64,000 nt of DNA from positions 1,250,001 through 1,314,000 of the forward strand of contig NW_026611617.1 of the NCBI RefSeq assembly GCF_028009165.1, read 5' to 3'. This DNA is from Akanthomyces muscarius (Eukaryota; Ascomycota; Sordariomycetes; Hypocreales; Cordycipitaceae). Below the pieces are notes generated by a model. It had not been told where the DNA came from, ran no database searches, and saw only the letters and a program-made list of their open reading frames with translations. Made by a program: the position numbers and the translations under genes. Positions 23,509 through 55,072 of this stretch are shown here, in pieces. Every line of letters starts with the position of its first letter. Within the stretch, counting starts at the first letter, position 1.

Positions 23509-23701
23509 TGTAAGGTGCTGTCGGCGAAGAGCTTCAGTCACTAGATGATCCTTGGGTTTTTAGAATGATGGTGGAATTATCGCTGCCTCCTCGCTACTCC
23601 CTCGTCGGCAGCCCGCAGCTATATAGTAGCTTCTTCGCACGTGATACCTCTGGTTGCCTATAACCTCCTACCAACCAACGTGCCCTGCGGGTGCCCTGAC
23701 A
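23509..23701 (-). repeat. Solo LTR of the Gypsy-A chromovirus family, almost unmutated
   Basis: 193 bp with TG...CA ends and a perfect 5-bp duplication AAAGT (23504-23508, 23702-23706). It is the best preserved LTR of the family in the window; CpG-rich parts such as CTGTCGGCGAAG and CCTCGTCGGCAG are intact. It lies inside RIP-saturated pogo-D DNA. Confidence 0.93.
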
Positions 23702-25175: not shown

Positions 25176-28100
25176 TCAACAGCGTTCAATAATGGATAAT
25201 TGAGCGTTCCAGTCCGGGTACCGGACAATGTCCTCTACGCTCAAGGAGTACCCCTTGAGCTCCATATGCGCTGCCAGCAAACTGGCCGACACTAAATCGC
25301 CACCACTTTCAAAAAAGTTCAGGGGCGATGTGCTCCATGCTTCGAATGATCTGTTGAGTGTTTCAGACCAGGCCTGTAGCAGCGCCGCTTCGGCATCTGG
25401 GTTGTTTTGGGCTGCTACAGCATCGGCCTCGGTTATAGAGATATTCCTCGCATGATTGTCTGCATTCGAGCTCAGCGCCTTGGCGTATGTCGTCTGGCTC
25501 GGCGCCTGCAAGGGCGTATCCATAGCTTTGTAAAAGAGGATGATGGTGTCTCGCAGCCGGAAGGAGAGTTTCTGCGCCTCCGCGTCACTGAAGAGCCCGG
25601 GTCCGAAGCTGAGCTCGATCCTGTAGCAGTCTTTGTGCGCCTTCGAAGTGACATGAATGTCGACCATGTCAAGATCCCCGACCCCAAGATCAACGTCTTC
25701 TTCCGCGTGCATGCCGCGCGCCTTCTCAGCAGCAACTGAGTCTTCGAAGTTGTGGTGGTACAAGACGGTTCCGGCAAAGGCCCAAGTGGCCCAGTTCGTG
25801 CAGGCTCGGACAATTTCGCGCGAGCCGAGATTCTCGTGATTCATGCTGGCAATCTGCTGGTCGTTGATATAAGAGACGAGATCACGCGCCGTCCATGTTT
25901 GACCAAACTTCACACGCGTGGGAATAATGTTGACGCAGGCTCCGAAGACATCGTCTACTCCAGGCAAACCACGGCCGTGAGTCAAGGTGCCGAACACAAT
26001 GTCATCCTCTGCGGTCGCGTGTGCAAGCGTATATGCCCATGCAGATTTCAAAATAGTTGAGAATGTAAATTCGCCGCCTTCTACGGCAGACCGGGGTATC
26101 TCGACTGCCATGGATGGGCCTTCACCATAACTCAGCTTGTACGTAGCGGGCTTTGTCATGGTAGTCATGGTCGAACCGTCGAGTAGTCGTCTCCAATATT
26201 CCAGAGCAGATTCCTTGTTCATTCGAGACAGCGAAAACATATAGTTTGAAAAGCTAGCCTTGCGAATGTCTTCGGAACGTGGGATGATACGGTTTGTGCT
26301 GGTTAGAGATTCGTTGTACATCTCTTCGAAAGCATCCCACATCTTGACCAGACTCATGCCATCATGCTGGGCATGGGACATGCGAACAATGATTCTGTAG
26401 GTTTGCTGTGCAACGTTGTGTAGGATTGAGATGCGCGTCAATGGTCTCCCATATGGGATTTGCATGGTGAGATCATGTTTGCGAATTTGTTCTGTCTGCG
26501 CATCAAAGTCGGTTCCGTTCTGGATTGTAAACACGGGTACGTAGACATCAATCTCTTTCAGAACAACCTGCAGGAAAATATCGTTGTGCGCGACGAAGAC
26601 GGTGCGCAGCAGATCATATCGTTGGACTAGGGCGGCGCACGTTGCTCTCAGCTTGCTTATGTTGGGTGCACCGCTGCCGTCCATGGTATGATATAGCAGG
26701 AGATTGCGATTAGCCGAGTGTGTGAGAGCAATGCAACGCGCCTGATGGTCAGTGACAGGCAGTATGTCTTCAACAGTGTCCGAGCCGATGCCCAGCTCAT
26801 AAAGCTGAGCATAGAGTGCCTCCTTGTTGTTAGATGCAGCAAGAGGTAGCAGAGAGAATGGTCTGTACCGTGGGGCATCCAAATCGTCTTCTTGACTCAT
26901 TTTCTTCAGCAGCAGTGCTTGATCACAGAAGATTTTGCTGGTGAGGATGTTTGCAACTGTAAGCAAATAGCCACGCGCGCGAGCTTCACTGACAAGACGC
27001 ATGGCGCTAATGGAATCACCGCCAAGTTTCAGGAAGTCATCATTGGCACTGATAGTAGAGGGCTCAACGTCAAGGACGGTAGACCACAGTTGCTGTAGTG
27101 ACATCTCTAAGGCGCCGCTGGGCTCGCGGTACTCCTGGGTTGAACCGCCCGCGGCGGCCAAATCCTCGCGCGTCAGGCCGCTGGCAATTTCACGTAGCCG
27201 CCGGCGATCAGTTTTGCCAGTTGCAGTCAGAGGAGAATACAAAATGGGGATGTAGGCCGCAGGTATCATGTATGGCGGAAGCTGCAAAGCCAAGCGCTCC
27301 TCGAGGTCTTGTGTGGCTTGCTTGACAAAGTCCTGGAATCCAGCCTCATCCATATCCCGCAATTGCTCACCAGTCGCAATTACAAAAGCGACCAGCATCG
27401 ACTTCCTGACGGCCGTGGGAGTAATCACTTCTGTAACCACTTGTATACCTCCACTGGTGAGGCAGGCTTCGATGTGGGATTCAATGTCGCCGAGTTCCAC
27501 ACGCTGGCCGTTTATCTTGACCTGCCCATCTTTGCGCCCGACAAAAGTCAGGGTTCCGTCCGTATTGTATCGTACCAAGTCACCGGTCTTGTACATTCGG
27601 CTGGTACGACCTGGGTGTCCTGGTGCGCCGCGGCCAAGGAACGACGCGCTGGTAATGAAGCTTGTTGCATTCGCATTGTCCCCAAGATATTCGCCGACCA
27701 AGGGGCCCTCCAAAAGAAGTTCTCCCACTACTCCAATCGGCACCAAGCTGTCTCCCACCGACGCATCCACAATCCAAGTATTCAACCCAAGTCCCCTTCC
27801 AATTGGAATAATTCCTGATGCGGCTTGTGTTGCATCAATCTCCGTAATTGTTGATGTCGGGGTACATTCACAAGGCCCATATGGGTTCAGCACCTTGGTC
27901 ACTGCCGACCATGCTCGTGCATTCTCTGCCGACAACTTCTCGCCGCCAAGCACAATTGTTTCAAGTTGTGACAGCGTCTCCAGAGACAAGGTGCTGATTG
28001 CACTTGGTGTCATGTCCGCATGAGTTACCCGCATTCGGCGAATGGCTCCAGCGGCGTCGTTTTTTCTTTCGTCCTCGGATGGTACACACAGACAGGCACC

Positions 28101-31100
28101 AATGGTAAATGTGTGGCAAAAGTTTGACCAGCTCACGTCAAAGGATTGATAGGCGAAGTCGAACACGCGTGAGGTAGGTTTGAAATAGTGTGCTGCTTGC
28201 TGATGCTTGATGGCACTGCTGTAATTTGAGTGAGAGATTGCTACACCCTTCGGCACGCCAGTACTGCCGGATGTGAAGTTGACGTAAAGCCGGCATGCTG
28301 GATCCACACTAGGCAGAAGCATGTGGTGCGCTTGAGGTATACAGGATAGCAGCGCGTCACTGATAATGACCACGTTGGCGCCGTGGAGCTTGCTGGCGAG
28401 CTCTACCTGGCTGGGAGATGCCAATATGACCGGGGAAGTGACCTGGTTGACAATTGACTCTAACCGCTCAAACGGCTGGTTCACGTCGAGAGTGACGGAG
28501 CCCCCCCCGGCTTTCATTACCGCCAACATTGCAACAGAGGCCCATTTCGATTTTTCGACACAGTGAGGAACAATGGCGTCAGACGTTACGCCGAGCTCAA
28601 TGAGATGATGGGCAAGGCGGGTTGCCAAGGTATCCAGTTCCTGATACGTCAGGTCGCCGTCCCAGGCGCAGACAGCAGCCGAATCTGGCTGCCTTGCGGC
28701 CGTCTCAGCAATTGAGTCGTGCACGCACTTATACTGAGTCTCCGGCACAGCCGCGTTCCAAGACCAAATATCATGCAAGTCATCCGAGCTGAGTGAGAGT
28801 GGCTGGCTGCCCTCGATGATGACCTCGATAGCTGACTGCATGTGGGACAGAACCCGCGCAGCTTGTTTCTCGGTTAAGTACGTGAGCGAGTAGCTGAGGT
28901 CAAGTTCAATCACAGTTGACCCATGGTTTATACCCAATCCAATCGCATACTGCAAACAGTGATTAGCCTTGGATACAATGGGGTGAGGAAACAAATCGGG
29001 CTTACCTCGGTTGGATCGTCACCATCAATGCTCTTTAAAATAATGGAGTCACTGCCCTGGTTATTGGAAGTTTCGACAACTCGCTGATACGAAACAATAG
29101 ACCCAAATAATTGCTGATCGGGGCTGACTCCAAGGTCGTGCTGAATTGTAGCAAGCGAGCTGTGCTGGTAGCTGAGATCCTGCATCAGCTGTTGGTGAGT
29201 ATGTTGCACAAAAGACTTGCCTGAGAAGTCATCATCAACTTCGGCCCGGCAAATCATCATATTTGTGTATGCGCCAACAGACGCGTGTATTTGCGGCACA
29301 TCGACGTCTCTGCCGGATGCCAGGTATCCGAAGCAAACTGAGCGGCGGCCAGTATACGCAGACAAGGTGAGGGCCCAGGCACTCTTCAGCAGACTAGCAG
29401 GCGTCACCATACAGGCTGTGCAGAATTGCATGATGCGGGAGATCTGAGATTGTTCCAAGGAAACGGTGAGCTCCGCCGACTGAAAAGTGGCCTTTTCTGT
29501 GACAGCAGAGAGACGCGGAAACTGACAAGGATCCATATCTGACAGCTTTGTCGTCCAATATGCAGTATTGGCGGTCTTGTCCCTGCTAGATAAGACTTTT
29601 GCGTATGCCTGCATTGTGGGTAGCATGTTGGTAGAGAAAGATTGTCCCTTAAGTGAATCGATGAAGTTCTGCTCTAGGATGCTCGCAGAAGCGCCATCTG
29701 TTATAGCGTGACTCATTTCCAGCTGCCAGAAGAGCTTGTCGGGTGTTTGACAGAAAATAGCCCTGTGTGGAGGCACAGACGGTTGATATTCCACGCTCGA
29801 GATCCCTTGTATCTTCCGCAGTGCTTCGAAATCATCCTTTGCTGATAGGAGAATGGTATTCCCCTTGTACTCTGCCAAAATCACCTGATGGAATGCAGAA
29901 CTACCATCTTGGCCGTTGATGAAGACGGTTCGTAATGCTGGTTGGTGTGCGATGACCTTTTGCCACGCTAGTAGAGCATTCTGCACACTTATAGCTTGAC
30001 CATAAAAAGCAGATATTTCGTAGAGTTGCTTGGTTTTATAAGCGTTGTCCTCTCTCATTTGACTCAGGAGCATGCCATCAACTGTTGGTGAGCATGGAAG
30101 CACTTCTTGAACTGACGACTGATTTGTAGACTCAATCTCTGCGAGAATGTCGTTGGACATGAAGTCGAGAGTCCTATAATTGAGTGCAAGATGCTCGAAA
30201 TCACAGAGAGTGCGTGATGGCTTGGAGTCCACCAGCTGACGGGAGATAACTTGCAACGAGTGGTCAATACCGGCAATCCACTGCCTGATGCGCCCCTGAT
30301 GAGCAATATGACGGTTGAATGAAAAGTCAAAGCAAGCCCGACCTCTCTCGATTGCAACTTCGATGTTGAAGAAGCTGGATGCTGGACAGCTGTAGCCTTG
30401 CTCTGAGACACCCTCAAGATTAACGTCTTGAAACAGGGCCGATTTGTCTTCGAGCTGCTGGAATAGTCCGTGATAGTTAAAAACAACCTCCATGTCTGTG
30501 TTGTGAGACTCGAATACCTCCTGTCCTCGGGGATTGAGGTACCGCGAAGCAAAATAGGCCCATCCATTGGACGGGAGTCGTCTCCTGGCGTCCTTGACGG
30601 TTCGAACTAGCTCGATGACTGAGGAGAAACAGCTGACATGCAGAGGGCTGAGAGTGGTAAACCAACCAACAGTGCGCGATGGATCAATCTCGGCGGACCA
30701 TGGCTCTCGACCATGACCTTCGTTGAAAACTGTCAAACCCTCTCGTTCGGGAAAGGAAGCCCGAAATGAGTGCCAGATAGAGGCAAGTAGAATTTCGACC
30801 GGTTCCGTTTTCAGAGAGGCATTGGCAGTTCCCAAAACAAGGCTTGTTGTCTCTTCACTAACATTGATATGCATGATGTCGTGATCCAACATATTGTTGG
30901 GAATGGGATTTGGGGATTCACTTGCCCAGAATCCGAGATTGTTAGATGCTTCCGAGGTTGTCAGCGTTGACGTCGGCACAAGCGATTGGGCCTTTTCGAT
31001 CTGCAGCTCGTTCCACATCTGGAACGGCATTGCCTTTGGCAAGTCAACACTCTCTAATAGCAGCTTTAAATCATCCAGTATAATGCGCCAGGATACCAAA

Positions 31101-34100
31101 TCAATCACCAGATGGTGCGCAATAAGTACCAAGTATTGGTCACCGTGCAGGTCGCAAATATCAGCGGAAAACACAGGGCCCTGTTCAATGTCGATGCTGC
31201 GGTGCCTCGCTTGTGCGAGATCGCGGATGGCATCCAGCGACTTGTAAGATGCGAGACCGACACCATATACGCCTTCGGAAGCGGCAACAATGCGCTGCTT
31301 CCACACCCCGGCTTGCTGCTCAAATCTGGCGCGCAGCATGGAATGATTTTCTACCAGCTTCGCAAAAGCCGCCATAATTTCATCGGTAGGAACACCTCGC
31401 GTTACCTTGACGTAGAAGCCCTGGTTATAGAAGGTTTCTGCCCCCTCAGAGCGGCTGGGCGGGTCTTGGTCAAAGTACCACTGCTGAATGGGCGAGAGAG
31501 GAAAGAGTGTATCGTGCTTCTCACTGTACGTAGCTGAGTCCAATGTGGTTCTCTTGGCGGAGCGCGCAAAGTCTTCCAATGTTTTGCTTTGAAGCAGCTC
31601 GGCAACGGAGAATGCGATATTGGCGACTCGAAGCTGCGAAGCTAAGCGCATAGCAGAGATGGAATCGCCTCCATTGGCAATGAATGACTGAGCAAAGTTC
31701 AACTTGTCAGGCTGCACATTAAGAACAGCGCTGCATGCTTCTTGGATAATGCGTTCCATTTCTGTGACTGGTTCTCGTACAGCGGCTTCGTTTCCGGAAC
31801 TGTTGACTCTCGCAAACACTTCTGGATTCATCTCAGCCACCCAAGTGTTGACTGACATGCGGTCTTGCTTTCCCGAGGCAGTCATCGGGAGTGTTGCGGT
31901 TACCACCCAAATCGTTGGAATCATGTACCGTGGAAGAGAAGTTTGAAGCTGGTCTTGAAGCGCCATAAGATGAGACGAGACGATGTCATCATACTTCGAG
32001 GCTACCAACTGTACACTTCGTGCTGAGACGGTATCTTCGGAAGGAATATCTTTGAACTGGACAACGCAGACGAGGCGTTTAGCACAGAGACCTTTTGTTG
32101 GGAGTACAATGACACATTGGTGGGTAGCCTCATAGCGACCGATATGGCTCTCAATTTCGCTTAGCTCTACACGCTGGCCATTGATCTTGACCTGTGCGTC
32201 TTTGCGCCCAACGAACGCTACGGTACCGTCAGAATTGTACCTGACAATATCTCCAGTGCGATAGACGCGTCCGTGGCGGTGTTGACTTAGTGGGCCGTTG
32301 AGCAGGAACTTGGGGTTGGAAATGAATGCCAAGTTGGTTTTGTCGGGGTCACCAAGGTATCCGCTTCCGAGTAGCGGTCCTTCAAGCAGAAGCTCTCCAA
32401 TGCCACCAATTGGGACCAGAGACTGGCCCGTGGCCGCGTCGGCAACCCAAGTGTTCAGTCCATGTGCGTGGCCGATGCTATTGCTCTGAACGTTACTTGG
32501 AGTAATGGCTTCCGTAAAAGTTGAAGTAGGAGTGCATTCGCTGGGTCCATATGAGTTCTTCACCGTGAGATTAGGGAACGCGGCCCATTGTTCTGCGTAC
32601 GCAGCAGTAAGGCGCTCTCCGCCAAGTGTAAGGCTGTGCAGTATGCGTAGAGATTCATCTGATAGGACAAGGGCAGCAGATGGAGTCAAGTCTGCATGTG
32701 TCGGGTTCAAACGGGAAATGGACCCGTTCAAGTCGTCTTTTCGGTCACTGTCAGAGGGTATACACAGCGTTGCGCCCACTTCAAACGTCAGCAAGACGTT
32801 AGCCCAGGCAACGTCGAACGCGTATGATGCAAAGTCAAACACACGTGACGTTGGAATAATGCCCTGAGCTGTCTTCTGATGGCGAATCGCGCTGCTGAAG
32901 TTAGAATGTGTAATCATAACACCCTTGGGGGTTCCGGTGCTACCTGACGTAAAGACCAGGTAGAGCAGATTTGCGGGTGAAACGGTAGGCAGCGGCTTTT
33001 GCAACTTGTCTTGCGACATGTTGGCTACTAGGGCAGCCCCTATGACAAGGGTTTGTTTGTCACTCAGTGTAGAAGCGAGCTCTCGTTTCAAATAGGAGCA
33101 CAAAATGATCGGCGCCTTTACTTGGCTGATGATGGAGCGAAGCCGGTCGAGAGGCTGGCTAGCGTCAACAGCGACCGAGGCAGCACCGGCCTTCATGACA
33201 CCGAGCATTGCGATAGGCATCCACTTGGATTTTTCAAACACCAGGGCAATAATATGACCAGGACGTACGCCTTGCTCGATTAAATGGTGAGCCACTTGCG
33301 TAGAGAGGCGGTCCAGGTCAGAATATGTCCAATTACCGTCCCAGGCACACACGGCTTGGGATTCTGGATGCTGACAGCAACTGTCCACGATGAGTTCGTG
33401 CACGCAACTGCTGACAGTCTCTGGGACGGAAGCGTTCCATTTCCAGATTTCGCTGGAATCCTGCTCACTGAAACAAGATATGTCGCAGACGCGCTGTCCA
33501 GGCTGAGGGTCGGACAGCTGTCGAATAACATGCTCCAGCTGACGGAGAAAGCGCCACCCCTGCAGATCATCCATCACATATGAGTCGAAATTCATCTTGA
33601 TTTTGATAGAATCTTTGCGCAAAAGACACTCTAGTGTCAGTGCATAGGTCTCAGACTCTTGCTGGGCGTCGTTGTCGTGGGAGCCCGATTCGTACACATC
33701 ACGAACGATGACTTTACTATGCCACTCGGCACTTTCATCGGCTGGCTGAACGATCAGAAGAGTCTGGAAATCGCACAGTCGCTCCGCTGCCGCACTTAGC
33801 CGTCGTATATTTTGGAGACCCATTTGCTCGTAGCTGGTCATCTCAATCGACTGCTCTTGAACCATTGCTAGGAACATAGTCACAAGCGCATCCGCAGGAA
33901 CAGAAATATGAACCGGCACCGTTGCAATGGCAGGGCCAATCATTGACTCGACACCAGGAACCGCAGCTTGTCGACCGGTGGTGGTTGCTCCATAGATGAC
34001 GTCGGGTGAACTCATGTACGTCGACGCTAGAATGGCCAAGGCAGCACGAATTGCGGAAGAAGGTGTGACAGCGCTGTTTTCCCAGTTCAACGATTCAATT

Positions 34101-37100
34101 TCGTGCAGTATCCTTTGATCAGTCTTTGGCTGGTGCGACGACGATGGAAGTACTGGGAACGCTTGCGCTTCAGAGTCGGATAGCTGAGCGTCCCAGAATG
34201 TCGCACATTGCGACTTGTCAACTGATTGAATATACTTGACAAAGGAGTTAAACTGATGGGCGTTGTCAAAACCTTCGGCGCCATATGCTTTCTCGAGCCG
34301 ATCAAAGATCAGATTTAGAGACCAACCGTCATAGACGGCGTGGTGGAGGGTAAGCATAAAGTAGGTTTTGCCATCCGCTGTCAACAAGCCATATTTCGCC
34401 AACGGAGAGCCGAGCGCAAACTCGTCTTCTGCTTCCTTCTCTGTGTAATCACGGAGCGATGCGGCAGAAGCATCTGTGTTCCACTCCGGAGTATACTTGA
34501 CGGAAATCTGTGTAAGTCCTTTCCCCGTCAAGTCGACGATTCTAGTCTGCAGAATGGGAGTACTGCTGACGACGGAGTCCCACGCTTTTTTGAATTGCAG
34601 AACATCACAGTCCGACTTCAGCTCCAGTGCGCACCGAATAATATAATCTCCAGCGCGTTGTGCTGTGAGCGCGAGTAAACCTGCCTGGAGAGGCGTGCAG
34701 GGATACATATCTACAATGTCGTCTGGTCGTAGATGGCAGGCCATTGCGGCTTCTTCAATCATTGTAGCGAGTTCGCCCTCGAATGGCCTCATGAGAGAAA
34801 AAGCATCTACTATCGATACAGCCTCTGGGCGTTGGGTAGTTGTCAAGAGAGACATGTCGCTCAGTTTGGGGTTGCGAAGGATATTAGCAACAGAGAGAAT
34901 CATTCCAGCCTCGCGAGCCGCTCCGACCAACCGCATCGCGCCGACAGAATCACCTCCAATCCGAAGAAAGTTGTCGTCCGCCCCGATGAGACTAGGCTCG
35001 ACATCAAGAACCTTGGACCACAGTTCTTGCATCTGGCGCTCCATGTATGTATCGGGCATTCGTCGACTTTCGGACTGTGTTGATAGAAGCTGTTCCCACG
35101 ATAAAGCATTTGCCATCTCCCGCAGACGACGCCTGTCTGTTTTCCCACTGGCGGTGGTGGGGACCTGTTGTAGTGGTATGTAGGCGGAGGGAATCATGTG
35201 CGCCGCCACTCTAGCAGTGAGAACATCGCGCAGATGCTTTGTCGCTTCATGTGTGAAACTCTTTAGCGTATCCGCATCCATTTCCTTGGCTAGCTCTGTG
35301 CCGAAGCATACAAAGGCAATGAGCATGGCATGTGACGTGCCCTGCGGCGTGACAACTTCTGCAACCACGTCAATATTGCCAAAGTCTTGCACAAGGCAAG
35401 ACTTGACACCGGATTCGATATCGCCAAGCTCCACTCGCATGCCATTGATTTTGACTTGAGCATCTTTTCTTCCGAGGAAGGCCAGTGCGCCGGAAGCATC
35501 GTAGCGAACAAGATCTCCCGTCTTGTACAGCCGACCAACCCGGCCAAAGTCTTGAATAAATCTGGGGCTGTCGACAAATGCAAGATTGGTCTTAGCTTCG
35601 TCTCCTAGATAGCCAGCGCTCACTAGAGGCCCCTCCAAGAGCAACTCACCCGTTACGCCAATAGGGACGAGAGAGTTGCCACTTGTCGGGTCGACAACCC
35701 AAGTATTGAGGCCAGATCCAAAGCCGACACTTATATAACTTGCGTCTCTGCCCACCACCGGCGCCATGGTTGAAAACGTAGTGCATTCCGTAGGGCCGTA
35801 CAAATTGGTCACGTTAACCGATGGATGCACAGATGCAAACGTTTCGGAGCGAAGGGGTTCGCCAATGAAATGGAGACTCCTTAGCCCATTGAGGGCGTCG
35901 AGATCATGGCCGCGCAGTGCCGATGGTGTCAGGATCACGCTGTTGACTTCGAATCGAGATATTGCAGACATGATGTCGCCTTTGCGATCTTCATCGGAAG
36001 GAATACAGACGCAACCGCCCGCTGACAAGCCGTGTAGGAGGTTGCACCATGCAACATCAAACATGTAGGATGAGAAGTCCAAGATTCGCGATTGCTCATC
36101 AAACTGAAGACTTGAGCGTTGGTGGTGAATTGCACTAGCAATATTGGCATGTGTAACAACAACTCCCTTCGGTACACCAGTGCTTCCCGAAGTGAAAACG
36201 ACGTAAATGCTGTCAGAAGGCGAAACAGCTGGTAGAGGCTCTATAGACTCGGCCAATGTTGCAAAGAGTGTGTCGCTGACGGGGATGGCCACGGTTCCGG
36301 GGCGTGCAAGTCGGCTTGCAATATCGTGGCTTCTTGCTGAGGATAGAATTACAGTCGAATTCGCCTGCTCGACAATGCCCTGCAACCGATCCTCAGGCTG
36401 AGCTGAGTCCAAGACTACCGACGCGGCGCCGGCTTTCATAACGCCCAGCATGAGAACGGCTGTCCAGCGAGACTTTTCAATGCACAAAGGCACCACGTGT
36501 CCAGTGGTCACTCCAAGGCACGCAAGGTTCTTTGCCAATCGAGTCGTTAGCTTGTCCAGCTCGTCATATGTAAAAGTACCATCCCATGCGTCAATAGCTG
36601 TGGATTGGGGTCGCGACAGGGTCGTTTCTGCGATCAAGGCATGGACGCAACGGTTGACAGTCGTAGGTACAGTGCTGTTCCACTGCCATATATCGGCAGC
36701 GTCTTCGTCGCTGCAAGACGCTAAATCTTTGAGGGCGAACTCGCTACTCAATGCCGAGCAAAATTTGAGAAGCAGAGATAGGAGTCGGCTGGCTTGATTC
36801 TGGGCCAAATGATCGGACTTGTGATCGAGCAGGATTTCCACATTACTCTTTCCGTGGCTTATATTGACGACAAGGTCATACTGCGAAAATCAGTAATGCT
36901 TTTAGGCTGTGTCAATTGCTGTCATGACATACCTCTGTGGGATCTTCTCCGTCCAGAACAGTTATGCTAATGTGATTGCCAATGTCTGAAGGGCTCTCAA
37001 CTTGACGTTGATATGACACGATACTATTAAATAGTGCTTCTTTAGAGGAAGCAAGCAGTTCGTGTTGCACGCTAGCAAGAGAACTGTGTTGATAACCGAG

Positions 37101-40100
37101 GTCTTCCATGGTTTGGTCGTGCACAGCGCGAAGCAAGCTGTTGCTTGACTCCTGGCAGTCTATAGCGACGCGGCTAACAAGCATATTGGTGTATGCTCCA
37201 ACGACTTCATCTATTCCAGGAATTGGAACATCTCTACCTGAAGCCAGGTAGCCAAATACAACAGAGTCGGTCTTTGTGTAGGAAGCAAGACTCAGCGCCC
37301 AGGCCGTCTGTAAAAAGCTGGCGACCGTAATACCGAGCGTTCCACAGTGCGCCTCAATAGCACGCAACAATTCTCCATTGATTTCACAAGTCGAGACGAG
37401 AGCATGCGAGTCTTCGGCATTATATGAAATGGGTGGAAAATGGCATGGCTCAGTTCCGTGAAGCTTGTCTCGCCAATACACATCCTTCGCACTCTTGGGG
37501 ACAGATGAAAAATGTTGCGAGAATGCTTCGGTAGTCGCAGCTAGGTTAGTAGTTGAAAGATTGTTAGCGTACGCATCGGCCCAGTCCTTCTGCAGGATTG
37601 AGGTCGAGGCACCGTCAGTGATTGCGTGGCTCATCTCCATTTGGCATATGACATCGCTTGATGAAATGCGGCAGAGCACCACGCGGTGGGGAGGGCAGTT
37701 TTCAGGGTATTCAAAGGGTTCCAAGCGGTCCAGCCAATCTGACGCACTTGCTTCATCAATGACAGTATCCTCCACCAGAATCACATTTGCGATATGCTTT
37801 TCGAGCACGACCTGGTAGAATGCCGAAGCACTGTCAAGAGCGGGAACAAATGCCGCGCGGAGGCCGGGTTGGCGATCCACAACCTTTTGCCAAGCATCTG
37901 CGAGATACTCTAGACTGATGATGTCTGTCGACTCGGATGTGATTCGGAAGCGCTGCATCGTTTTATAGGATCCCGCATAGTTGATTTGACTGATCAGAAT
38001 CCCGTCAACTGTCGGGGTGCATGAGAGAACGTTTTGAACTTTGAAGCCATTTGCTAGTTCCACGGCGGGAATCACTGTTTCCTGAAGTGTCACAAGACTC
38101 TGATAATCAAGGTCCAAGAAGGGGTAGTCACATAGGGTCTGAGGCGGTCCAGAGTATGTCTGAAGCTCCTTGCAAATTGAGCGAAGAGCCGTGGGAATAT
38201 GATCAATCCAGCTTTTAATCATTTCTTGATGGGCGATGTAGCGATTGGCAGACACAGATAACACTGCCATGTCGTCTTCCAGAGACACCTCAATACCGAA
38301 TAGCGACGAAGCAGGAAGTAGAGGGCCTTGCTCTTGAACGTTGCTGAGTGTGACATTGGAGAAAAGTGCGTCGTCTTTTTCCAGCTGCTGGAACTGGCCA
38401 TGATAGTTAAATGTCATCTCCATCATACTGCCATGTCTTTCGAAAGCCTGCCTTCCCTGCTCATTCAGGTACCTGGAGGCAAAGTATGCCCAACCGTTTG
38501 CCGGAAGACGACGGCGCGCGTCTTTTATGTACCTGAGTAGCCCCAAATTGGTAACTGCCGCACTCCGCGGAAGATTGATGGGGCTGATGGAGGTAAACCA
38601 GCCCACAGTTCGAGAAATATCCACGTCCATGGACCACGGTTCGCGCCCGTGGCCTTCACTAAATATGGTCAAATTGGTGCGATCTGAGAAGACGGCAAAG
38701 AATGCATTCCATACCCCAGCCATCAGAATCTCTACTGGCTCGGTGTTCAATGCGTCGTTGGCCGCGGACAGTATATAGGCTGTAATGTCCTTGTCCACAG
38801 AGACTGTTCGCACGCTGTGTTCTTCAACAGTGTTGACTCTCTCGAGGGGCAACTGCCAGAAATCAATGCTGTTGTGTATGTTTGTCGTTGAGAGAACGGA
38901 GTCTGGACTAAGCGTCGAAGCATGGGCTGTTTGCAGATCATTCCAGGTCTGAAATGGCAAGCTGGATAGAAGCCTGCCGCGAGATAGAATAGTCTCGAGA
39001 TCTTCTAGCATAATACGCCAGGATACCAAATCGATGACAAGGTGATGTGCGACGAGTATAAGGTATGTGTCTGTCGAATCGTCACCCAGTGTACAGAAAT
39101 CGGCCGAAAAAACCGGACCGTTCTCTAGGTCGAGCTCCCCATGACGCCTCATTGTCAGACTGCCTAACTCAGACAAGCTTGACACATGAGAATGAGAATA
39201 CATAAAGTTTTTTCCGTTGCCGTGCGGTAGGACGAATTGCATCCATCTCCCTTCCACGTGCTGGAAACGTGATCGGAGCATCGAGTGGTGTTGAACAAGA
39301 CTGTCCAGAGCGCTAGCCATGGTTTCGCTTGATAACTGCTGACCAAGCTTGACGTAAAAGCCCTGGTTGCACCAAGCATTCTTTGCCGAATCGCGCTTGT
39401 GTGCCACTTGATCGAAGAACCAGCGCTGGATCGGAGAAAGGCTGAAATTCTTGTTTTCTTCTTCCGTAAATGAAGTCGGTTTCACGGAAGCTGTCTGCAT
39501 TCCAGTGGCGGCAAAGATCGCGAGCGACTTGCTCCTCAGCAATTGTGCAACAGAAAATGTGACATTTGCGGCGCGACAGTGCGCACTAAGACGCATGGCG
39601 GAAATCGAGTCGCCAGAGTTCGCAATGAATGACTTGTCCAAGTTGATGGCATCTGCTGGAATGTTGAGAATGGTACTGCAAGCAGAACAAAGGACTTTTT
39701 CTAGCTCTGTGGCAGGCTCGCGCCATGCTGCGGCGGTCCTGGCGAAGCTGGCTAGCGATGACACTGTCATTTCGTCAGCCTGTTCAATCCATTGACGCAG
39801 GCGCTTAGCGTCAAGTTTCCCGGATGTTGACAGAGGCAATTCTTTGAGAGGAACCCAAAGAGATGGCACCATATAGGCAGGCAGCGCCTCGCGCAACAGG
39901 ACCTCGAGTGCATCGATGTGAGCACTGACTGCCTGCTTATGAGCATAGGATTGAAGCTCAATGCCGCTTTCACTTGAAGAGTCACTAACACCCGAAAGGC
40001 TAAAGAAACCAACTACTTTGTTGGCGCATAGTCCACTCTTTGGATATGCGCATGCAGCTTGGCGTGTGTTCGGGTGACGAGAGATGTGACTCTCAATGTC

Positions 40101-43100
40101 GCTAAGTTCCACTCGTTGGCCATTGATCTTGACTTGGGCATCTTTTCTTCCAACGAAGCTGAGACTGCCGTCTGCATTATAGCGGACCAAATCACCGGTC
40201 CTATATAGTCTTCCTGCGCGGCCAGCGTAGCCAGGGGCTCCTTTCGTGAGGAATAAAGCATCATCGACGAATGCTTCCTTCGTCTTCATTTCGTCATTGA
40301 GATATCCCAAGCCGACGAGGGGCCCTTCGAGTATCAATTCTCCAACAGCTCCGATCGGAACGAGCGTCTGCCCTGAAGCGGTATCAACCACCCAGGTATT
40401 CAGTCCAAGACCTTTGCCAATGCTTGCAGTAAAGGTGTCGTCTGGTGTAATATGCTGAAGGGTCGCAGTTGGTGTGCACTCACTTGGACCGTACGGGTTC
40501 TTGAGTGCCACCAGGCCCGACCAGTAACGCGCGTTGTCAGCAGAGAGCTTCTCGCCGCCCAACACCAGCGTCGTCAGGCTCTTGAGTGCTCCTTCTGAAA
40601 GGACCGCAGCAGTGGACGGCGTGAGATCTGCATGTGTCACTCCGAGTCTTTGGATGGAGCCGGCCAGATCGTCCCGTCGGTCTTCATCAGAAGGCACGCA
40701 TAGACACGCGCCGATTGTAAAGGTATGGAAGAAGTTAGATACGCTAACATCAAAAGCGTATGACGCAAAGTCATATACTCGAGAAGTAGGCCGAAATCCG
40801 TGGGCTGCCTGCTGGTGTAAGATGGCACTACTAAAATTCGAATGGGATATCATGACTCCTTTTGGGGTGCCCGTAGAACCAGATGTAAAGATCAAGTACA
40901 GAGGGCTTGAAGGGTCCACGGTCGGAAGCTGGCCTTTGTAATGCTTTAAGGCGCGGGAGGATTGTGAGTCTAGGACAACATTCTCAGCCGAGCTAAGGTT
41001 TTGTGCAAAAGACGAGTTGCGCGCAGAGGAAATAATCGCGGTGGCGTTGATTTGAGCCACAATGGTACGGAGACGCTCCTCGGGCTGAGATGGATCTAGG
41101 GCAACAAATGCGGCGCCAGCCTTCATCGCCGCTAACATGGCGACGGGAGTCCACTTCGACTTTTCAAATAGAAGAGGTACAATTGTGCCAGCGACGTGAA
41201 GCTCCGTCAGTCGGAATGCCAACTTGGTCGCCAGGCCATCGAGCTCAGCGTAGACAAAGTCACCATCCCAGGCGCTGACAGCGGGCGAATGTGGTTGCCG
41301 TTTGACAGTCTCTTGGATTAGGTCATGAACGCACAGGTTTGCAGTTTCAGGAACAGTCTGGTTCCAGCCCCAAATCCTCTGCAGGTCGTCTTGGCTGGTC
41401 ACATTGACGTCCTCCAGCTTACGAGTAGCGTTGTTTTCGTCGCACAGTTGTCGTACAATGTGCTCATACTGCGCAGAAAATCGCTGAACTTCATGATTGG
41501 TGATGACCTGCGAGTCGAACATGACGCGGACAGAGACTGCGCTATCTCTTAGTAGGCATTCCATTGTAAGGGCATAAGTTCCGAGTGCTGCAGCGCCAGA
41601 CACATCGCCATCGTGCAAGTTGGAGGCGGCATCGGCAAAAATGGCCTTGCCGCTCTCGTTTGCTCCTTCTGCGGGCTGCACTACGAGGAGAGTCTGAAAA
41701 CTGCAAAGGCGCGCGGCATCGGAGCTGAGACGCCGGATGTTGTGAAGGCCGTCTTGTTCGAACGCAATCATCTGCAGCGACTGTGTCTGAACAGCAGCCA
41801 GGAGACCTTGGATGTCCTGGTTTTGCTTTACAGAGACGCGGATAGGAACCGTTGCGATGGTAGGCGCCACGAGACTCTCGATATGAGGCACAGGGGCTTG
41901 TCGACCGGACGTGACGGCGCCGAATGTGGCATCTGGAGAATCTGTGTAGAAACTCAAAAGTAGGCCCAAAGCTGCGCGCAGTGCAGATGGTGCGGTACCT
42001 CCTGCGATGGGCCATACCAAGTTGTCAATGGTTAACTCGTACAAACTGTTAGCTCTGGGTTCGTAACCTGGCTCAGGGAGTGGCGGAAAGGTCTGCCCCT
42101 CAACACCCGCAGACTGCTGCCTCCAGAAATCGGCAGCTTTATCTGCGTTGCCATTCTTCATATATTGCATGAACGGGTGGAAGCTGGAGATTTGTGTGTC
42201 TTGGCCGTTGTCGGACAGATATGCTTGTTGCAGGCGCTCAATCATAAGGTTGACCGACCAGCCATCGTAGATTGCGTGATGCATTTGCCAGACAAAGTAT
42301 ACTCCCGCCTTGTCTCCTTCGCCCGTGGCGAGGTCAAACCTCCCCAGGCTTGCTGCTAAGCCAAACTGCCCATGCTCCTGGGTCAATCTCTCAAGGGTAG
42401 GAATATTCTCACACGAGAGGTTCGAGCCTTCATCGTGATGGCGCAATACAACTTGCACAAGACCCTCGCTGTCAAGATTGACGATTCGTGTACGAAGAAT
42501 GGGAGTGGTGGAGAGTACGGTGGCCCAGGCCCTACATAATCGAGGCAGATCGACGGTTGGTTGCAGCTTTAGGTCGTAGCGAACAACGTAGTCACCTTCT
42601 CGCTTTGTAGACAGCGACATGAGGCCCTCCTGCAGCGGGGTGCAGGGAAGAATTTCTTCGATATCGGAGGCAGCGACGCGACACAAGGTAGCGGCCTCAC
42701 TGAAAGCATATTTCGGGTTCGTATCAGGTCGGAATAGTGATGAAAGGCTGTAGACGGCTTCGTCACCTGAAGTAGAAGCATTGGTCAAAACTTTTGCCAT
42801 TTGCTCTAGGTTTGGATGGAAGAAAATGTCGGAGACTGTCACGTGGAGGCCACAGTCCCGCGCCGCAGCAACCAGCTTCATGGCAGCAATTGAGTCTCCG
42901 CCGAGTCGTACAAAAGAATCATCGATGCTAAGCTCTATCTCACTGATCCCGAGGACGGAAGACCATAGCTCGAGTAGCTTGGCTTGGTTCGGTGTGGTGG
43001 GTAGACGCCTGGCCCCCAAGGAGCTCGCCGCCCCGGTCGCAGCAGCCAGATCCACTGATTTAACAAGGGAATGGAGCTTTCTTCTATCAGTCTTTCCAGT

Positions 43101-44723
43101 CGCAGAGAGAGGAAACTCGGCTAGAGGTATGTAGAGTGCCGGGATCATGTACGCCGGCACGGACGCACGCAGGCGATCCTCGAGCCCTTCTGTAATTCCG
43201 GCCAGACGTTGGGTAAGATCTGCCGAGTGGTTCTCGTCGGTGCTTTTCCGGTGCATGGCGAAAAAGGCAACAAGGAGTTTCGTCTCGCTGTTGCTGGGCT
43301 GAACCATTTCCGCGACAATGTCTTCGACGGAATCGGCCGGAATGGCTTGGCGAATGTGATGCTCAACATCACCAAGCTCGACTCGCTGGCCGTTGATCTT
43401 GACTTGCGTATCTTTTCTCCCGATGAATATTATGTCTCCCGTTTCTTGGTCATATCGCACCAAGTCGCCTGTTTTGTAGAGGCGCCCGTGACGACCGGAA
43501 GAAGCGGTACCCGGTACGCCATTGACCAAGAATGCTGGGTCAATCACAAACGCATCGGTATTCTTTGTGGCGTCCAGGTATCCCTCTCCAACGAGCGGCC
43601 CTTCAAGAAGCAGCTCGCCAACCTCGCCAACGGGGACCAAATTGTCTTCATCTTCGGCGCTGACAATCCAAGTGTTAAGGCCCAAGCCTCGACCGATGGC
43701 TCCACTGTACTCTGCGCTCGGGTCGACAGTGATGATTGTTGCAGTTGGCGTGCATTCGCTGGGTCCGTACGGGTTCTTCAGTTGTTTGACGAGTTTAGAC
43801 CAACGCTGCCCGTGTTCTGTGCTCAGCTTCTCTCCACCGAGCACTAAAACATCAATTTGCTCCAGCACTTGGTCCGGCAATATCCGGGCAACTGAAGGTG
43901 TAATGTCGACATGTGTAGCTCCGCGACGAATAATTGACCCAGCGAGGTCGTTGCTGCGCTCGGCATCCGAGGGGATAAGGAGGCAGGCTCCTATAGTGAG
44001 AGTGTGTATCAAGTTCGACCAACTAACGTCGAATGCATATGAGGAAAAGTCGTAGACGCGGGAGCTTGACGTAAACCCGTGTGCGTCTCGTTGGTGGAGG
44101 ATGGCGCTAGCGTAGTTGGAATGGGTAATTATAGCGCCTTTAGGCGTACCAGTGCTACCAGAGGTAAAGATGACATATAGTCGGTCGGCAGGAGACACTT
44201 TTGGCAGCTGCGTCGCACGGTATGGCGAGCAGAGGGCAACGAGGGCGTCGTCGCTGAGTATTACATGTGCCTCGCAGGAAACAATTTTGGCCGCCAGCGG
44301 CGCCTGCAATTGCGAGCAAATGATAACGGAAGCGGATGTTTGGCGTGCGATAGATTGCAAGCGCTCTTGTGGTTGGCTGGGATCCAGTAAAACCGATGCA
44401 GCGCCGCATTTCATGACCGCAAAAGCGGCTACCGCGGTCTGCTTGGACTTTTCGAAACAAATCGGAACAATTTGGCCCTTGCCAATGCCATTTGCAACCA
44501 GATATTGCGCCAACTCTGTAGACTTTTGGTCAAGTTCGTTATAGGTCCAATTGCCGTCATGTGCGCAGATGGCAAGTTCATCAGGTTTGGCGTGAGCCGT
44601 CTTGGAGAAGATCTCGTGAACGGTAGAAGCATTGGAACTGGGAACACTGGCGTTCCAGCCCCAAATCTTGGCTAGATCCGCCATGGCAGCAGGCATATGG
44701 GACGAGTCTGCGGTCCGCGTCAT
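25176..44723 (-). CDS. Pentamodular non-ribosomal peptide synthetase, predicted cyclic pentapeptide synthetase
   Basis: One gene of three exons: 44723-36933, 36880-29006 and 28949-25176. The 52- and 56-bp introns are phase 0 with GT...AG borders. The product is 6,479 aa. An in-frame TAA four codons before the ATG fixes the start. Approximate residues: A1 20-555, T1 (Ser611), C1 670-1110 (HHAIYDG), A2 1115-1655, T2 (Ser1706), E1 1755-2190 (HHLVIDLVSW), C2 2210-2650 (SHAITDG), A3 2655-3190, T3 (Ser3242), C3 3300-3740 (HHAVYDG), A4 3745-4285, T4 (Ser4337), E2 4385-4820 (HHLVIDLVSW), C4 4840-5270 (SHAITDG), A5 5280-5815, T5 (Ser5868), CT 5925-6370 (SHAQHDG), and a carrier-like tail 6405-6479 with GGDL. 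All A domains keep SGSTG-PKG, the pocket Asp and the GK-D lysine. No starter C, N-methyltransferase or thioesterase is present. Inferred product: L-D-L-D-L pentapeptide, released and probably cyclised by CT. I do not recognise a known compound. Confidence 0.95.
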
Positions 44724-47588: not shown

Positions 47589-50500
47589 ATGACGCTGTCG
47601 TGTCCCGTGTCCGCGGACAATGTCTTTGGGCCTGCGGTGGCGGCGCCGTGCAGGGCCGGTTTTGATTTTACGCTCCTTTTCGAAGAGACTGTCTTGACAA
47701 TTTTACCCTTGAGTCTGGCAAGTGAGTGTGAGCCCCGCCTGAACAGGTCTTGTTTTTATAAATAAAAAATAAAAATTGCTGACGCGATTCAGTATGCTGG
47801 GTAATCGGTCGCCTTGTCCAATTACGTTCTGCGACAGCCAAAGTCACGACCGGCTGGCTCCTGTCTAGCAAACTGGTAAGTAAGAAACGTCGCCCGAGAT
47901 GTTGGCCAGCCAGCCCTTTGTACAACGTTTAACGGTTCCAGCTCCTGTGGTCCGCCGACGTGGCTCTGCGGGTAGTCCAGTTAGCACTCTGGGTCTCGCG
48001 AGGCATACCCAGAACCGAGACGACGGTCGCTTGCTTGGCTCTATGTATCGTTGGGTCAGTTTTAATGCTCATTTGCTCGCACCGTGAGCATTTCCACGTG
48101 CTCCGGCCGTCGACTCCCTTGATTGTATTTCTAGGCGTGTCTCTCATTCTCGATCTCGCTCGCACACGAACGCTGTTCTTCTACTACACTGGCAAAGACG
48201 CTGTCGCCATTGTCAACGCGGTTGGGTATGGCGTAAAATTGCTACTATTTATTGCCGAAAACGTGGAAAAGAGACAGTGGCTGCGACCGCAATGGGCCGA
48301 AGTCTCTCGCGAAGAAGCCAGCGGCGTGCTAAACCGCTCGCTCTTCATTTGGCTCAACCCACTCTTCACTTTGGGCTTTGGTAGCAAACTGACGCTCAAG
48401 CAACTGTTTTCGCTCGATGCTGAGATTAAATCTGCGGCGCGTCCCGTCGAGCTGATGGAAGAATGGGAACTATGTGAGCGTGGTACCGCCTGTCGACTCG
48501 TGGACAACCGTCTGACCTTTGTGAACAGCGTCCAAATCGTCCAGTCATGCTCTGTTCTGGCAGTTTCTTCGCCACTACAAGTGGCAGTTCCTAGCGGGCG
48601 TATTGCCCCGACTCAGCTATAGCGGCTTCCTCTTTGCGCAGCCATTTCTCTTGGAGCGCGTCCTTGACTTTATCGATGAACAACGCGTGGCCAACACCGA
48701 TTCGACTGCATATGGCCTCATTGCTGCCTATGGTATCGTATATATTGGGATCGCTGTAAGTGTCGGCTGGAGCGGTTGTCTGGCTTTTGGAACTGACGGA
48801 GAACGCAACAGGTCTCCTACACCATTTATCAGCACAAAACATATCGACTTCTCACACTATATCGCGGGAGCTTGATTGCCCTCATCTACAACAAGACGCT
48901 AAAGATGAACGTTGCGAATGTGACCGATGCGGAAGCCATAACGCTCATGAGCGCCGATATCGATCGCATCGGACACAGTCTGCCACTGATTCATGAGCTG
49001 TACGCAAGCCTCTTGGACATTGCCATCGCCCTTTGGCTGCTGTACGGACGACTCGGTATTGCCATGATAGCGCCAATTATCTGGATTGCTTGTGAGTTTG
49101 CGACCTAGGGAGAGGGAAATGCATGAGTGGCAGGCCCTGGAACTTTGCAAAAGCAGGACTTGTTTTGCTAACGCTCGCCAGTATTCACGATTGCCGGTCT
49201 ACCAATTGCTGGCGCGGCTGGTAATGCTCAGTCGCCATGGCTAGACGCAATTGAAGATCGCTTGGCCGTAACTGCAAAGGCACTAGGCTCGATGAAGGCG
49301 GTCAAGATGACTGGCCTTTCTGATCTCGTTTCCACGACTCTTAGGCGTCTCCGATGGGCAGAGATTCACGCTTCTCTGCGCTATCGAGTACTAAACATTT
49401 TTGTGACCGTTTCCTGCAAGTGAATTACCATTCAACGGCTGAGGTCGAGTAACGTTGCTAACTTTTTCCCTCAAGATTTTGCATCCTCTGCCGTGGCTCC
49501 TGTCTGGGGGTTTGGTGTCTACAGTATACTAGCGAAAGCTAGAGGCACACCGACTCTCACTGAGGGCGTTGCTTTTGCTGCGCTCAGCCTGTTTGAGCTT
49601 ATGAATCAACCGCTCATCCATATTGTAGATGGTTTTGAACATATTCAGACTGTCAGAACCTCATTCCGTCGCGTTCAAGAGTACTTGGAGTCGGACGAGC
49701 GCGAGGACTACCGTGTAATTGTCAATCGATCTCCTTCAATATCAGATGATGAAAAGGAAAAGCTTCGCATTCTCGAAAAGGCACCTTCACATCACCAAGA
49801 TTTGAACGCAGATGACGCAGTCACTCTTGCGAATGTTTCGGCAGCATACAGCGTTGAGGGCGACCCGGTGTTGGCGAACCTCAACCTTTCCATCAAGAAA
49901 GGCGAGACTACAATGGTCTTCGGCCCAGTCGGGTGTGGCAAGTCGACATTTCTGCGACTACTCCTTGGCGAGATGGCTTCAGTCGTTGGAGAAGTCACGA
50001 CATGCTTCTCCACGGCAGCATTCTGTCCACAGACGCCTTGGATCACATGGGGGTCTATCCAGAGCAACGTTGTTGGCGTACTAGACTTTGAGGGAAAATG
50101 GTACAACATTGTTGCGCAAGCTTGTCTGCTGCTGAGGGATTTCCAGGAGCTTTCTGACGGAGATCAGACCAACACCGGCAGCCGCGGGTCTCGACTCAGC
50201 GGTGGTCAACAGATGCGCGTGTCGTTTGCCAGGGCTTTGTACTCGAGGCGCCCTGTCATGGTCCTAGACGATGTCTTGACTGGCCTCGATCGTGTCACGG
50301 AGCGCGGTATTCTGGAGCGGGTATTTGGACCTGGAGGGTTGTTGAAAGAAATGGAATCCACAGTCATCATGGCGACAAACAGCTTTTCCCACCTTCAGTT
50401 TGCCGACAACATCATCATTCTCAATGAAAAGGGCCAAGTCGCGCGACAGGGCAGGTGGGAGGCTATTAGTGCTGATTCTGCATTTGCGCACCACTCCGTC

Positions 50501-54775: not shown

Positions 54776-55072
54776 CGTGATGCTGGTTCGCTCTGTATGC
54801 GGAAATGAGAGCGTGACACGACCACAGAGAAGCTGGTTCTGTTCTTGTGTTTATGTGAGACTTCGCGTTTGTGACTACTTTTATGCTCACTAAGGTGCAT
54901 GCAACCTGTCAGCGCTAGCCTAAAAATACAGCACCCCACAAAAAGTTAGTTGTTAAAATGCGGCGTGTTACTTTTCGGCATGTAGGGCACTGAATAAAAG
55001 TACTTCCTATACACGCAATTTAAGAGTAAAATAAGAAGTATTTAGATTTCTAGATTAATAATTAACTAAGGA
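54776..55072. other. Upstream region of the hydrolase and right boundary of the GC-normal island
   Basis: Normal composition holds to about 54990, then AT-rich DNA begins. There is no open frame beyond a 67-codon piece (54736-54939, minus) overlapping the hydrolase start. It presumably holds the hydrolase promoter. Confidence 0.5.

What the first reader, a model, noticed from the sequence alone, without database searches (positions are those of the whole stretch)
25176..44723. Five-module NRPS predicted to make an L-D-L-D-L peptide released by a terminal CT domain
The domain order read from motifs is A-T-C-A-T-E-C-A-T-C-A-T-E-C-A-T-CT-T*. Two E domains keep HHLVIDLVSW and each is followed by a C domain of the D-accepting type (SHAITDG). 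There is no starter C domain, N-methylation or thioesterase; the CT domain has the SHxxxDG form known from fungal macrocyclising domains. I cannot match this layout to a named compound. The island has no other visible tailoring enzyme, so the product should be a simple, probably cyclic pentapeptide.
Basis: partly seen in the sequence, partly recalled or inferred. Interest (0 to 1): 0.75.

Follow-up and report, generated by a model that had tools for sequence, protein, structure and literature searches.

The report
Five-module fungal peptide synthetase, dead tail
This is one intact fungal gene for a giant enzyme that most likely builds a small ring-shaped peptide of five amino acids, and it ends in a carrier-like domain that has lost the residue a carrier needs, a loss shared by nearly all the related fungal enzymes examined that end this way.

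Summary
The finding is real. Window 25176-44723 (-) holds one three-exon gene (introns 36881-36932 and 28950-29005) for a 6479-aa NRPS, order A-T-C-A-T-E-C-A-T-C-A-T-E-C-A-T-CT-T*. A C-domain tree supports two LCL, two D-accepting and one terminal macrocyclase-type C. Orthologs with the same order and nearly the same five A-domain codes occur in Lecanicillium, Aphanocladium and Whalleya; Aspergillus and Penicillium forms add a methyltransferase-like insert. I found no named product.

The most interesting part is the terminal T*: its pantetheine-attachment Ser is Leu. In the proteins listed by two searches, 94 of 94 terminal T domains (the window's own included) lack that Ser, while 1191 of 1192 internal T domains keep it. 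T* is kept far better than the linker before it and groups apart from internal T domains (82 of 82, support 0.991). Best reading: CT cyclises the L-D-L-D-L peptide directly from T5, and T* is a conserved pseudo-carrier. I found no report of this in an open-access library.

The parts
25176..44723 (-). Whole gene of the five-module NRPS (6479 aa, three exons); exact start codon uncertain
   Evidence: Spliced reading without stop; Pfam; single-protein orthologs P0002, P0003, P0014 of 6464-6634 aa with the same order
36881..36932 (-). Intron 1, 52 nt, GT-AG, inside the first D-accepting C domain
28950..29005 (-). Intron 2, 56 nt, GT-AG, same codon position in the second D-accepting C domain
43032..44621 (-). 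A1, code DVSIVGPPT (nine positions read)
42795..43028 (-). T1 (GGDS)
41382..42671 (-). C1, LCL type (HHAIYDG)
39756..41330 (-). A2, code DVSLVGPPT
39510..39743 (-). T2 (SGDS)
38148..39455 (-). E domain of module 2 (HHLVIDLVSW, EGHGRE)
36689..38039 (-). C2, D-accepting type (SHAITDG); contains intron 1
35069..36646 (-). A3, code DVCLHILTF
34850..35083 (-). T3 (GGDS)
33446..34726 (-). C3, LCL type (HHAVYDG)
31805..33403 (-). A4, code DVALTGSPT
31565..31798 (-). T4 (GGDS)
30218..31522 (-). E domain of module 4 (HHLVIDLVSW, EGHGRE)
28767..30118 (-). C4, D-accepting type (SHAITDG); contains intron 2
27144..28724 (-). A5, code DVSMVGPPT
26916..27146 (-). T5 (GGDS), carrier that should hold the finished pentapeptide
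25491..26783 (-). CT, terminal condensation-like domain (SHAQHDG)
   Evidence: best solved relatives TqaA 5dlk, 5egf, 5dij, 5ejd, E about 1e-33; clade with TqaA CT
25200..25427 (-). T*, carrier-like domain with GGDL in place of GGDS (Leu 6441, window 25293-25295)
47933..52469 (+). Neighbouring multi-exon ABC transporter; full-length type inferred from two ABC and one TM domain hits
   Evidence: PF00005, PF00664, PF00005 in successive open frames, translations; exact exon ends not determined
53089..54850 (-). Neighbouring beta-lactamase-fold serine hydrolase with DUF3471, two exons (outer bounds of open frames)
   Evidence: link to the NRPS not shown

Best explanation
One gene encodes a linear five-module NRPS. 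Modules 1 to 5 load five amino acids (shown: five A-T pairs; identities not assigned). E domains in modules 2 and 4 invert residues 2 and 4, and the D-accepting C domains that follow pass them on (domain logic). The L-D-L-D-L pentapeptide on T5 is attacked by its own N-terminal amine in the CT domain and leaves as a head-to-tail ring (inferred from the relation to TqaA CT). The terminal T* cannot hold a thioester at the usual site, because the pantetheine Ser is missing (shown by sequence); it is a conserved pseudo-carrier that most likely acts on CT by contact, for example by occupying the face where an acceptor carrier would dock (inferred, untested). Unlike in GliP, the chain cannot be moved to the last T before cyclisation.
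For: Gene structure and order. C subtypes by tree: C1 and C3 with LCL, C2 and C4 with D-accepting, CT in a 23-member terminal clade with TqaA CT, support 0.995. CT to TqaA CT E about 1e-33. Five A codes nearly unchanged in L. saksenae, A. album and Whalleya (79, 79 and 48% identity over the region searched) and in A. welwitschiae; four available in P. digitatum, also alike. Terminal T Ser-less in 18 of 18 (window plus 17 relatives among the 120 listed, P0001 dropped as the same gene) and 76 of 76 (among the 110 new proteins), against Ser in 606 of 606 and 585 of 586 internal T domains of the same sets. T* identity to four orthologs 81, 78, 42 and 47%, linker before it 27, 33, 21 and 9%. Tree: 82 of 82 terminal T apart from 185 internal T, support 0.991. 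P0177 (A. niger) has HcpA-like A codes and GGDI at its terminal T, and the hcpA gene was tied by deletion to cyclic and derived linear tetrapeptides (PMC4041764, abstract).
Against: No metabolite, expression or structure data. One relative whose terminal T keeps Ser, P0285, groups with the T* set, and its CT sits beside Ser-less ones, so the history of the loss is not simple. In Whalleya T* (42%) is the least conserved of the domains compared, and the T* bounds in that comparison were trimmed by 12 residues that count in the linker. Of the 94 Ser-less terminal T, 25 score under 25 and 5 under 10 with the T profiles, so some are weak calls. Many relatives end in CT with no T found. The searches were seeded with this CT-T*, so they cannot give the frequency of Ser-bearing couplets. 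MlfA shows that module number and peptide length can differ in fungi.
Confidence: 0.7

Rival explanations
1. T* is a dying remnant of a GliP-type terminal carrier, without function.
For: The Ser is lost; Pfam PP-binding scores T* at 17.3 bits, under its cut-off of 20.8; many relatives end in CT without a detected T; echinocandin-type P0149 keeps only a weak trace (score 6); in Whalleya T* is the least conserved domain.
Against: T* is kept at about the level of the C and T domains in three of four orthologs, while the linker before it is not; the lost Ser is replaced by Leu, Ile or Val in 93 of 108 cases; T*-specific residues such as a Glu at 94% recur, and the 108 fall into 28 clusters at 40% identity.
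Confidence: 0.15
2. T* still works as a carrier, as T3 of GliP does, through another nucleophile.
For: The GliP cyclisation step is ascribed to CT plus T3 (PMC11610984, passages; Baccile 2019 recalled, not held). P0285 keeps Ser in this couplet.
Against: No other Ser is conserved near the site in 108 Ser-less sequences: the commonest of the positions from -6 to +8 has Ser in 25.
Confidence: 0.04
3. The enzyme is as read, but the product is not a simple cyclic pentapeptide: a domain is used twice, skipped, or CT hydrolyses the chain.
For: MlfA has four A and five C domains for a pentapeptide; the CT of IvoA hydrolyses (PMC11546977, passage).
Against: Order and codes are collinear in the window and three orthologs in full, and in two more with an insert or a truncated model; no lone A or missing C; CT belongs with TqaA CT.
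Confidence: 0.18
4. The three exons are separate genes.
For: Each is a long open frame.
Against: Each exon edge cuts through a C domain at GT-AG borders; the deposited model of the same gene (P0001) and orthologs P0002, P0003 and P0014 are single proteins.
Confidence: 0.01

Closest known systems
Uncharacterised orthologs: Lecanicillium saksenae NLG97_g303 (P0002), Aphanocladium album PWT90_05370 (P0003), Whalleya microplaca F5B20DRAFT_584637 (P0014)
   Same: Same 18-domain order, same E positions, codes identical (P0002, P0003) or with at most one change each (P0014), Ser-less T*
   Different: No product is given in the names returned
Aspergillus welwitschiae BDQ94DRAFT_173144 (P0121) and Penicillium digitatum PDIDSM_5342 (P0017, model lacks A1)
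   Same: Codes with at most one change each, same E positions, Ser-less T*
   Different: Methyltransferase-like insert before A2, and in P0121 an extra carrier after C1
HcpA / fungisporin-type synthetases (P0177 by its codes; P0195 by like domain order)
   Same: E followed by D-accepting C; terminal C-PCP, the PCP Ser-less in P0177 and P0195; HcpA is tied to cyclic tetrapeptides (PMC4041764 abstract)
   Different: Tetrapeptide, displaced A domain (PMC4041764 passages and section)
GliP (gliotoxin DKP synthetase), two modules plus a last T
   Same: Ends in a CT-T couplet (PMC2823734 and PMC11610984, passages)
   Different: Its T3 is described as part of the cyclising machinery, and its active-site Ser is required by the abstract that I recall (Baccile 2019, not held)
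TqaA CT domain (5DIJ, 5EGF, 5DLK, 5EJD)
   Same: Closest solved relatives of this CT; same clade
   Different: CT macrocyclisation is described as needing no additional T (PMC11610984, passage); the end of full TqaA was not examined here
MlfA (malformin)
   Same: Fungal NRPS for a cyclic pentapeptide
   Different: Four A domains, five C domains (PMC6298953, PMC6900853, passages)

Membership tests
Fungal macrocyclising NRPS with CT domain | Terminal C-like domain after the last functional T, no thioesterase | tested here: met
Fungal macrocyclising NRPS with CT domain | CT in the clade of TqaA CT, catalytic His kept | tested here: met
   23-member clade, support 0.995; SHAQHDG; E about 1e-33
Fungal macrocyclising NRPS with CT domain | Releases a macrocycle | not testable with these tools
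   needs metabolite or enzyme assay
Fungal macrocyclising NRPS with CT domain | Closed acceptor channel in CT | not tested
   structure prediction unavailable
GliP-type CT-T couplet | T domain after the terminal C | tested here: met
GliP-type CT-T couplet | Last T can carry pantetheine (Ser) | tested here: not met
   GGDL
HcpA/fungisporin family | E-C-T-C-T end with an A domain displaced upstream | tested here: not met
   Window has A5 before T5
Malformin synthetase MlfA | Four A and five C domains | tested here: not met
   five A, five C, two E
Conserved five-module family (this work) | Order, E positions and five codes shared | tested here: met
   P0002, P0003, P0014 in full; P0121 and P0017 with insert or truncated model

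The most novel reading that the evidence does not exclude
Fungal cyclic-peptide synthetases of this lineage end in a dedicated pseudo-carrier: a carrier fold that gave up its pantetheine site and was kept as a fixed partner of CT, mimicking an acceptor carrier so that CT cyclises the chain instead of waiting for an acceptor or hydrolysing. It would be a non-catalytic release-control domain that profile cut-offs can overlook.
Probability: 0.35. Interest if true: 0.75.

Novelty: new variant of a known kind. Interest (0 to 1): 0.55.

Why it matters
The synthetase itself is a new member of a well-known kind, but its shared codes in fungi that I place (from memory) in Hypocreales, Xylariales and Eurotiales predict that related pentapeptides await detection, also in Aspergillus welwitschiae and Penicillium digitatum. 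The Ser-less terminal carrier is the broader point. It turns the open question of how CT domains choose cyclisation into direct tests: does T* bind CT, and does removing it change release? It may also affect engineering of fungal cyclic peptides, where the tail could be cut off as useless or missed by annotation.

Tried and rejected
Considered and dropped: malformin as the product (MlfA has four A domains); fungisporin type (different order). The beta-lactamase-like neighbour as a trans-acting cyclase: possible, but PF00144 has 49 matches in this genome (exon pieces, two of them this gene), so position alone says little. Amino-acid prediction from the codes: six code strings (five of the window, one of relatives) were found in no paper of the library, and prediction for fungal codes is called unsatisfactory (PMC10212144, passage), so I name none. 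The codes were read by anchoring motifs to GrsA numbering that I recalled; nine positions were read and the tenth letter, K, was added by the script. A claim that Ser was lost once: the T tree fits it, the CT tree does not, so I leave it open. Synteny of the neighbours in orthologs was not tested; I saw no way to reach fungal contigs here. Rfam found nothing at gathering thresholds; bacterial promoter scans equal chance. NCBIfam named no specific NRPS family at its cut-off among the 25 rows shown per exon, only the generic adenylation domain.

Not in print: the searches and the passages or sections read in 15 papers showed no mention of a Ser-less terminal T. I read no paper whole, and the library lacks most subscription journals, so this is weak.
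Full report
What was checked. Three long open frames on the minus strand lie at the stated place. Two short GT-AG introns join them: 36881-36932 (52 nt) and 28950-29005 (56 nt). The spliced frame runs from ATG 44723 to the stop at 25176, 6479 aa, without interruption. Both introns fall at the same codon of the two D-accepting C domains, so they look like copies of one older intron. The C, E and T comparisons partly agree with an old duplication of an A-T-C-A-T-E-C block: C1 is closest to C3 (42%), C2 to C4 (41%), E1 to E2 (47%), T2 to T4 (55%); the A domains (45 to 54%) show no such pairing, and T3 is closest to T5 (54%), not T1. The tree pairs the C and E domains likewise. The exact start codon is uncertain; orthologs start at different points.

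Domain order. Profiles built from the protein itself give A-T-C-A-T-E-C-A-T-C-A-T-E-C-A-T-C-T, and Pfam agrees in kind but does not list T* as a separate stretch in exon 3 at E<=0.001. In a tree of 140 C and E domains from 24 proteins plus TqaA CT, C1 and C3 fall with LCL domains, C2 and C4 with domains that follow an E, and the last C with terminal domains. All 16 terminal C domains with a T after them lie in an 18-member clade (0.924); the other two, P0149 and P0195, also have a T* by the second profile (scores 6 and 48). Two of eight terminal C domains without T (P0061, P0019) fall outside the 23-member clade. The nearest solved structures to the last C are four TqaA sequences at E 9.6e-34 to 3.8e-33. 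Both E domains keep their motifs in the window and in the five orthologs examined.

Where it is. The window lies at C10:1250001-1314000 of a 36.2-Mb genome in 12 contigs. C10 is 1370647 bases long, the same as the longest contig given for P0001, annotated Akanthomyces muscarius LMH87_008468. P0001 is the same gene: it differs only by nine residues missing at the N-terminus and in residues 5875-5932, where 49 residues are missing and six mismatch. The deposited model thus seems to place one or more extra introns between the T5 core and CT. P0002 and P0003 keep the residues there (T5 83 and 75%, T5-CT linker 64 and 70% identity), so those introns are doubtful. P0001 is dropped from the counts below.

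Relatives. A search with the end of the protein scored 1713 candidates, found 1496 and listed 120. P0002 (Lecanicillium saksenae, 79%), P0003 (Aphanocladium album, 79%) and P0014 (Whalleya microplaca, 48%) have the same order. The five A codes of the window, DVSIVGPPT, DVSLVGPPT, DVCLHILTF, DVALTGSPT and DVSMVGPPT (nine positions), recur in them with at most one change each. P0121 (Aspergillus welwitschiae) has five likewise; P0017 (Penicillium digitatum) the last four, its model lacking A1. Both carry a methyltransferase motif before A2; in P0121 the stretch matches Pfam Methyltransf_12 at E 1e-5, below the cut-off. The window, P0002, P0003 and P0014 lack the motif. P0121 also has an extra T after C1, and the one internal T without Ser in all the sets, a Pro, is in P0121. 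So the scaffold is conserved over what I recall as three orders, and the Aspergillus and Penicillium products may be methylated. A1, A2 and A5 differ at one code position only, so residues 1, 2 and 5 are probably alike. I assign no amino acids.

The terminal T*. In the window the last T reads GGDL instead of GGDS. I located T domains in all proteins listed by the three searches and read the residue at the Ser column (recounted without P0001). One search list with the window (120 proteins): 18 have a T after the last C, 0 of 18 with Ser; internal T domains 606 of 606 with Ser., the 110 new proteins: 76 have one, 0 of 76 with Ser; internal 585 of 586., P0231-P0296 (66): 15 have one, 1 with Ser (P0285); internal 121 of 121., P0297-P0350 (54, the named ones mostly bacterial): 9 have one, 9 of 9 with Ser; internal 75 of 75. 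Terminal T were accepted from score 3, internal ones from 10; of the 94 in the first two sets 5 score under 10 and 25 under 25. Proteins that end in CT without a detectable T are not counted. The lists are the best 120 of each search, and the searches were seeded with this CT-T*; they do not give the frequency in all fungi.

T* and decay. Against P0002, P0003, P0014 and P0121, T* (residues 6409-6472) has 81, 78, 42 and 47% identity, CT 81, 83, 52 and 54%, T5 83, 75, 45 and 40%, and residues 6376-6408 before T* 27, 33, 21 and 9%. In P0014 T* is the lowest of the domains. In 108 Ser-less sequences the site holds Leu 50, Ile 37, Val 6; the Gly two places before is kept in 107 and the Asp before the site in 99, so the register is firm; no other Ser is common nearby (at most 25 of 108). 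The 108 fall into 39 clusters at 50% and 28 at 40% identity. In a tree of 82 terminal T (score 25 or more; P0285 included) and 185 internal T domains (180 drawn at random from 1310 plus the window's five), all 82 stand apart from all 185 with support 0.991. T* has marks of its own, such as Glu at 94% where the commonest residue of internal T domains is Ala (45%). P0285, the one with Ser, is the first branch of that group (81 Ser-less together, support 0.867). The CT tree disagrees: the CT of P0285 lies beside those of Ser-less P0208 and P0217 (support 0.926). Whether P0285 kept or regained its Ser is open. That T* is a carrier homolog is shown by its match to T5 (34% over 56 aa, E 4e-7 for that single comparison); 10 of 11 weak solved matches are NRPS chains (E 0.019 and up), one is beta globin. 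Pfam scores T* of the window under its cut-off. In relatives Pfam is mixed: it shows five PP-binding stretches in four-module P0031 and two in P0232, but one in P0237 and P0238, so the domain is sometimes seen and sometimes missed.

The genome holds at least three NRPSs ending in CT-T*, all three without Ser: the window, C3:3115812-3117470 (GGDL) and C6:2943815-2945524 (WGNL) (seven loci, L004-L010, were inspected besides the window).

Mechanism. Shown by sequence: five loading modules, two E domains, fitting C types, a terminal C of the macrocyclase clade, and a last T without the usual pantetheine site. Inferred: the peptide is L-D-L-D-L, is held on T5, and is cyclised by CT with its own N-terminus. 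In GliP the step is ascribed to CT and T3 together (PMC11610984, passages). That cannot be copied here. A Ser-less end is compatible with cyclisation: A. niger P0177 has codes like those printed for HcpA orthologs (by eye; PMC4041764 section) and GGDI at its end, and hcpA deletion tied that enzyme to cyclic and derived linear tetrapeptides (abstract). That paper calls the last domain PCP, and the word serine does not occur in its text. A review says that the acceptor side of TqaA CT is closed (PMC11546977, passage). I propose that T* acts on CT by contact; structure prediction, which could have tested it, was not available.

Surroundings. The gene lies in a GC-normal island at about 24.5-55 kb between AT-rich tracts. 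The window is about 57 to 121 kb from a contig end with TTAGGG repeats. In the island are also an ABC transporter at about 47.9-52.5 kb and a beta-lactamase-fold hydrolase with DUF3471 at 53.1-54.85 kb. The hydrolase has SSAK, YCN and HDG, which I take for the SxxK, YxN and HxG motifs of that fold from memory; its best solved relative is 2qmi, and D-aminopeptidase 1ei5 is also listed. With 49 PF00144 matches in the genome, cluster membership is unproven.

Verdict. As a synthetase it is ordinary. The conserved Ser-less terminal carrier is what deserves attention.

Noticed in passing
window 26820-26993 (about residues 5875-5932 of the NRPS): The deposited model of this gene (P0001, LMH87_008468) lacks 49 residues between the T5 core and CT, presumably by extra introns; the frame is open there and P0002 and P0003 keep the residues.
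   Followed up: partly
window 47933-52469 and 53089-54850: ABC transporter and beta-lactamase-fold hydrolase in the same GC island, not mentioned in the finding.
   Followed up: partly
window 1-8000, 18500-24000, 56000-64000: AT-rich tracts with RIP-type dinucleotide ratios (TpA/ApT 1.5-1.75; substrate ratio 0.04-0.15) against 0.59 and 1.34 in 25000-44700. PMC11354060 reports 1.54 and 0.16 for A. muscarius AT-rich regions and concludes no active RIP (passages), which seems at odds with the usual criteria as I recall them. The genome has PF00145 matches at C2:4639982 and C3:2362046.
   Followed up: partly
window 14390-14713 and 15194-15604: Remnants of a retrotransposon (integrase core, below its cut-off, and RT RNase H, above it) on the minus strand.
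   Followed up: no
G000:C3:3115812-3117470 and G000:C6:2943815-2945524: Two more NRPSs of the same genome end in CT and a Ser-less T (GGDL, WGNL); the tail of the first resembles those of four-module proteins of Cordyceps and Beauveria.
   Followed up: partly
P0121 about 1094-1690, P0017 1-444: Aspergillus and Penicillium orthologs carry a methyltransferase-like segment before A2; P0121 also has an extra carrier after C1 and one internal T with Pro in place of Ser.
   Followed up: partly
P0149, P0152, P0154, P0158: P0149, named as an echinocandin B synthetase, and three similar proteins keep a weak trace of a terminal T (GGDLLDA, scores 6 to 10) after CT.
   Followed up: no
window A5 domain, residue region of EGPLVGEYL: A5 lacks one residue in the EGPLVGxGYL motif (EGPLVGEYL); L. 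saksenae and A. album share this.
   Followed up: no
window 1-64000: Subtelomeric: the window ends about 57 kb from a contig end with TTAGGG repeats; a second NRPS lies near 110-114 kb of the same contig.
   Followed up: no
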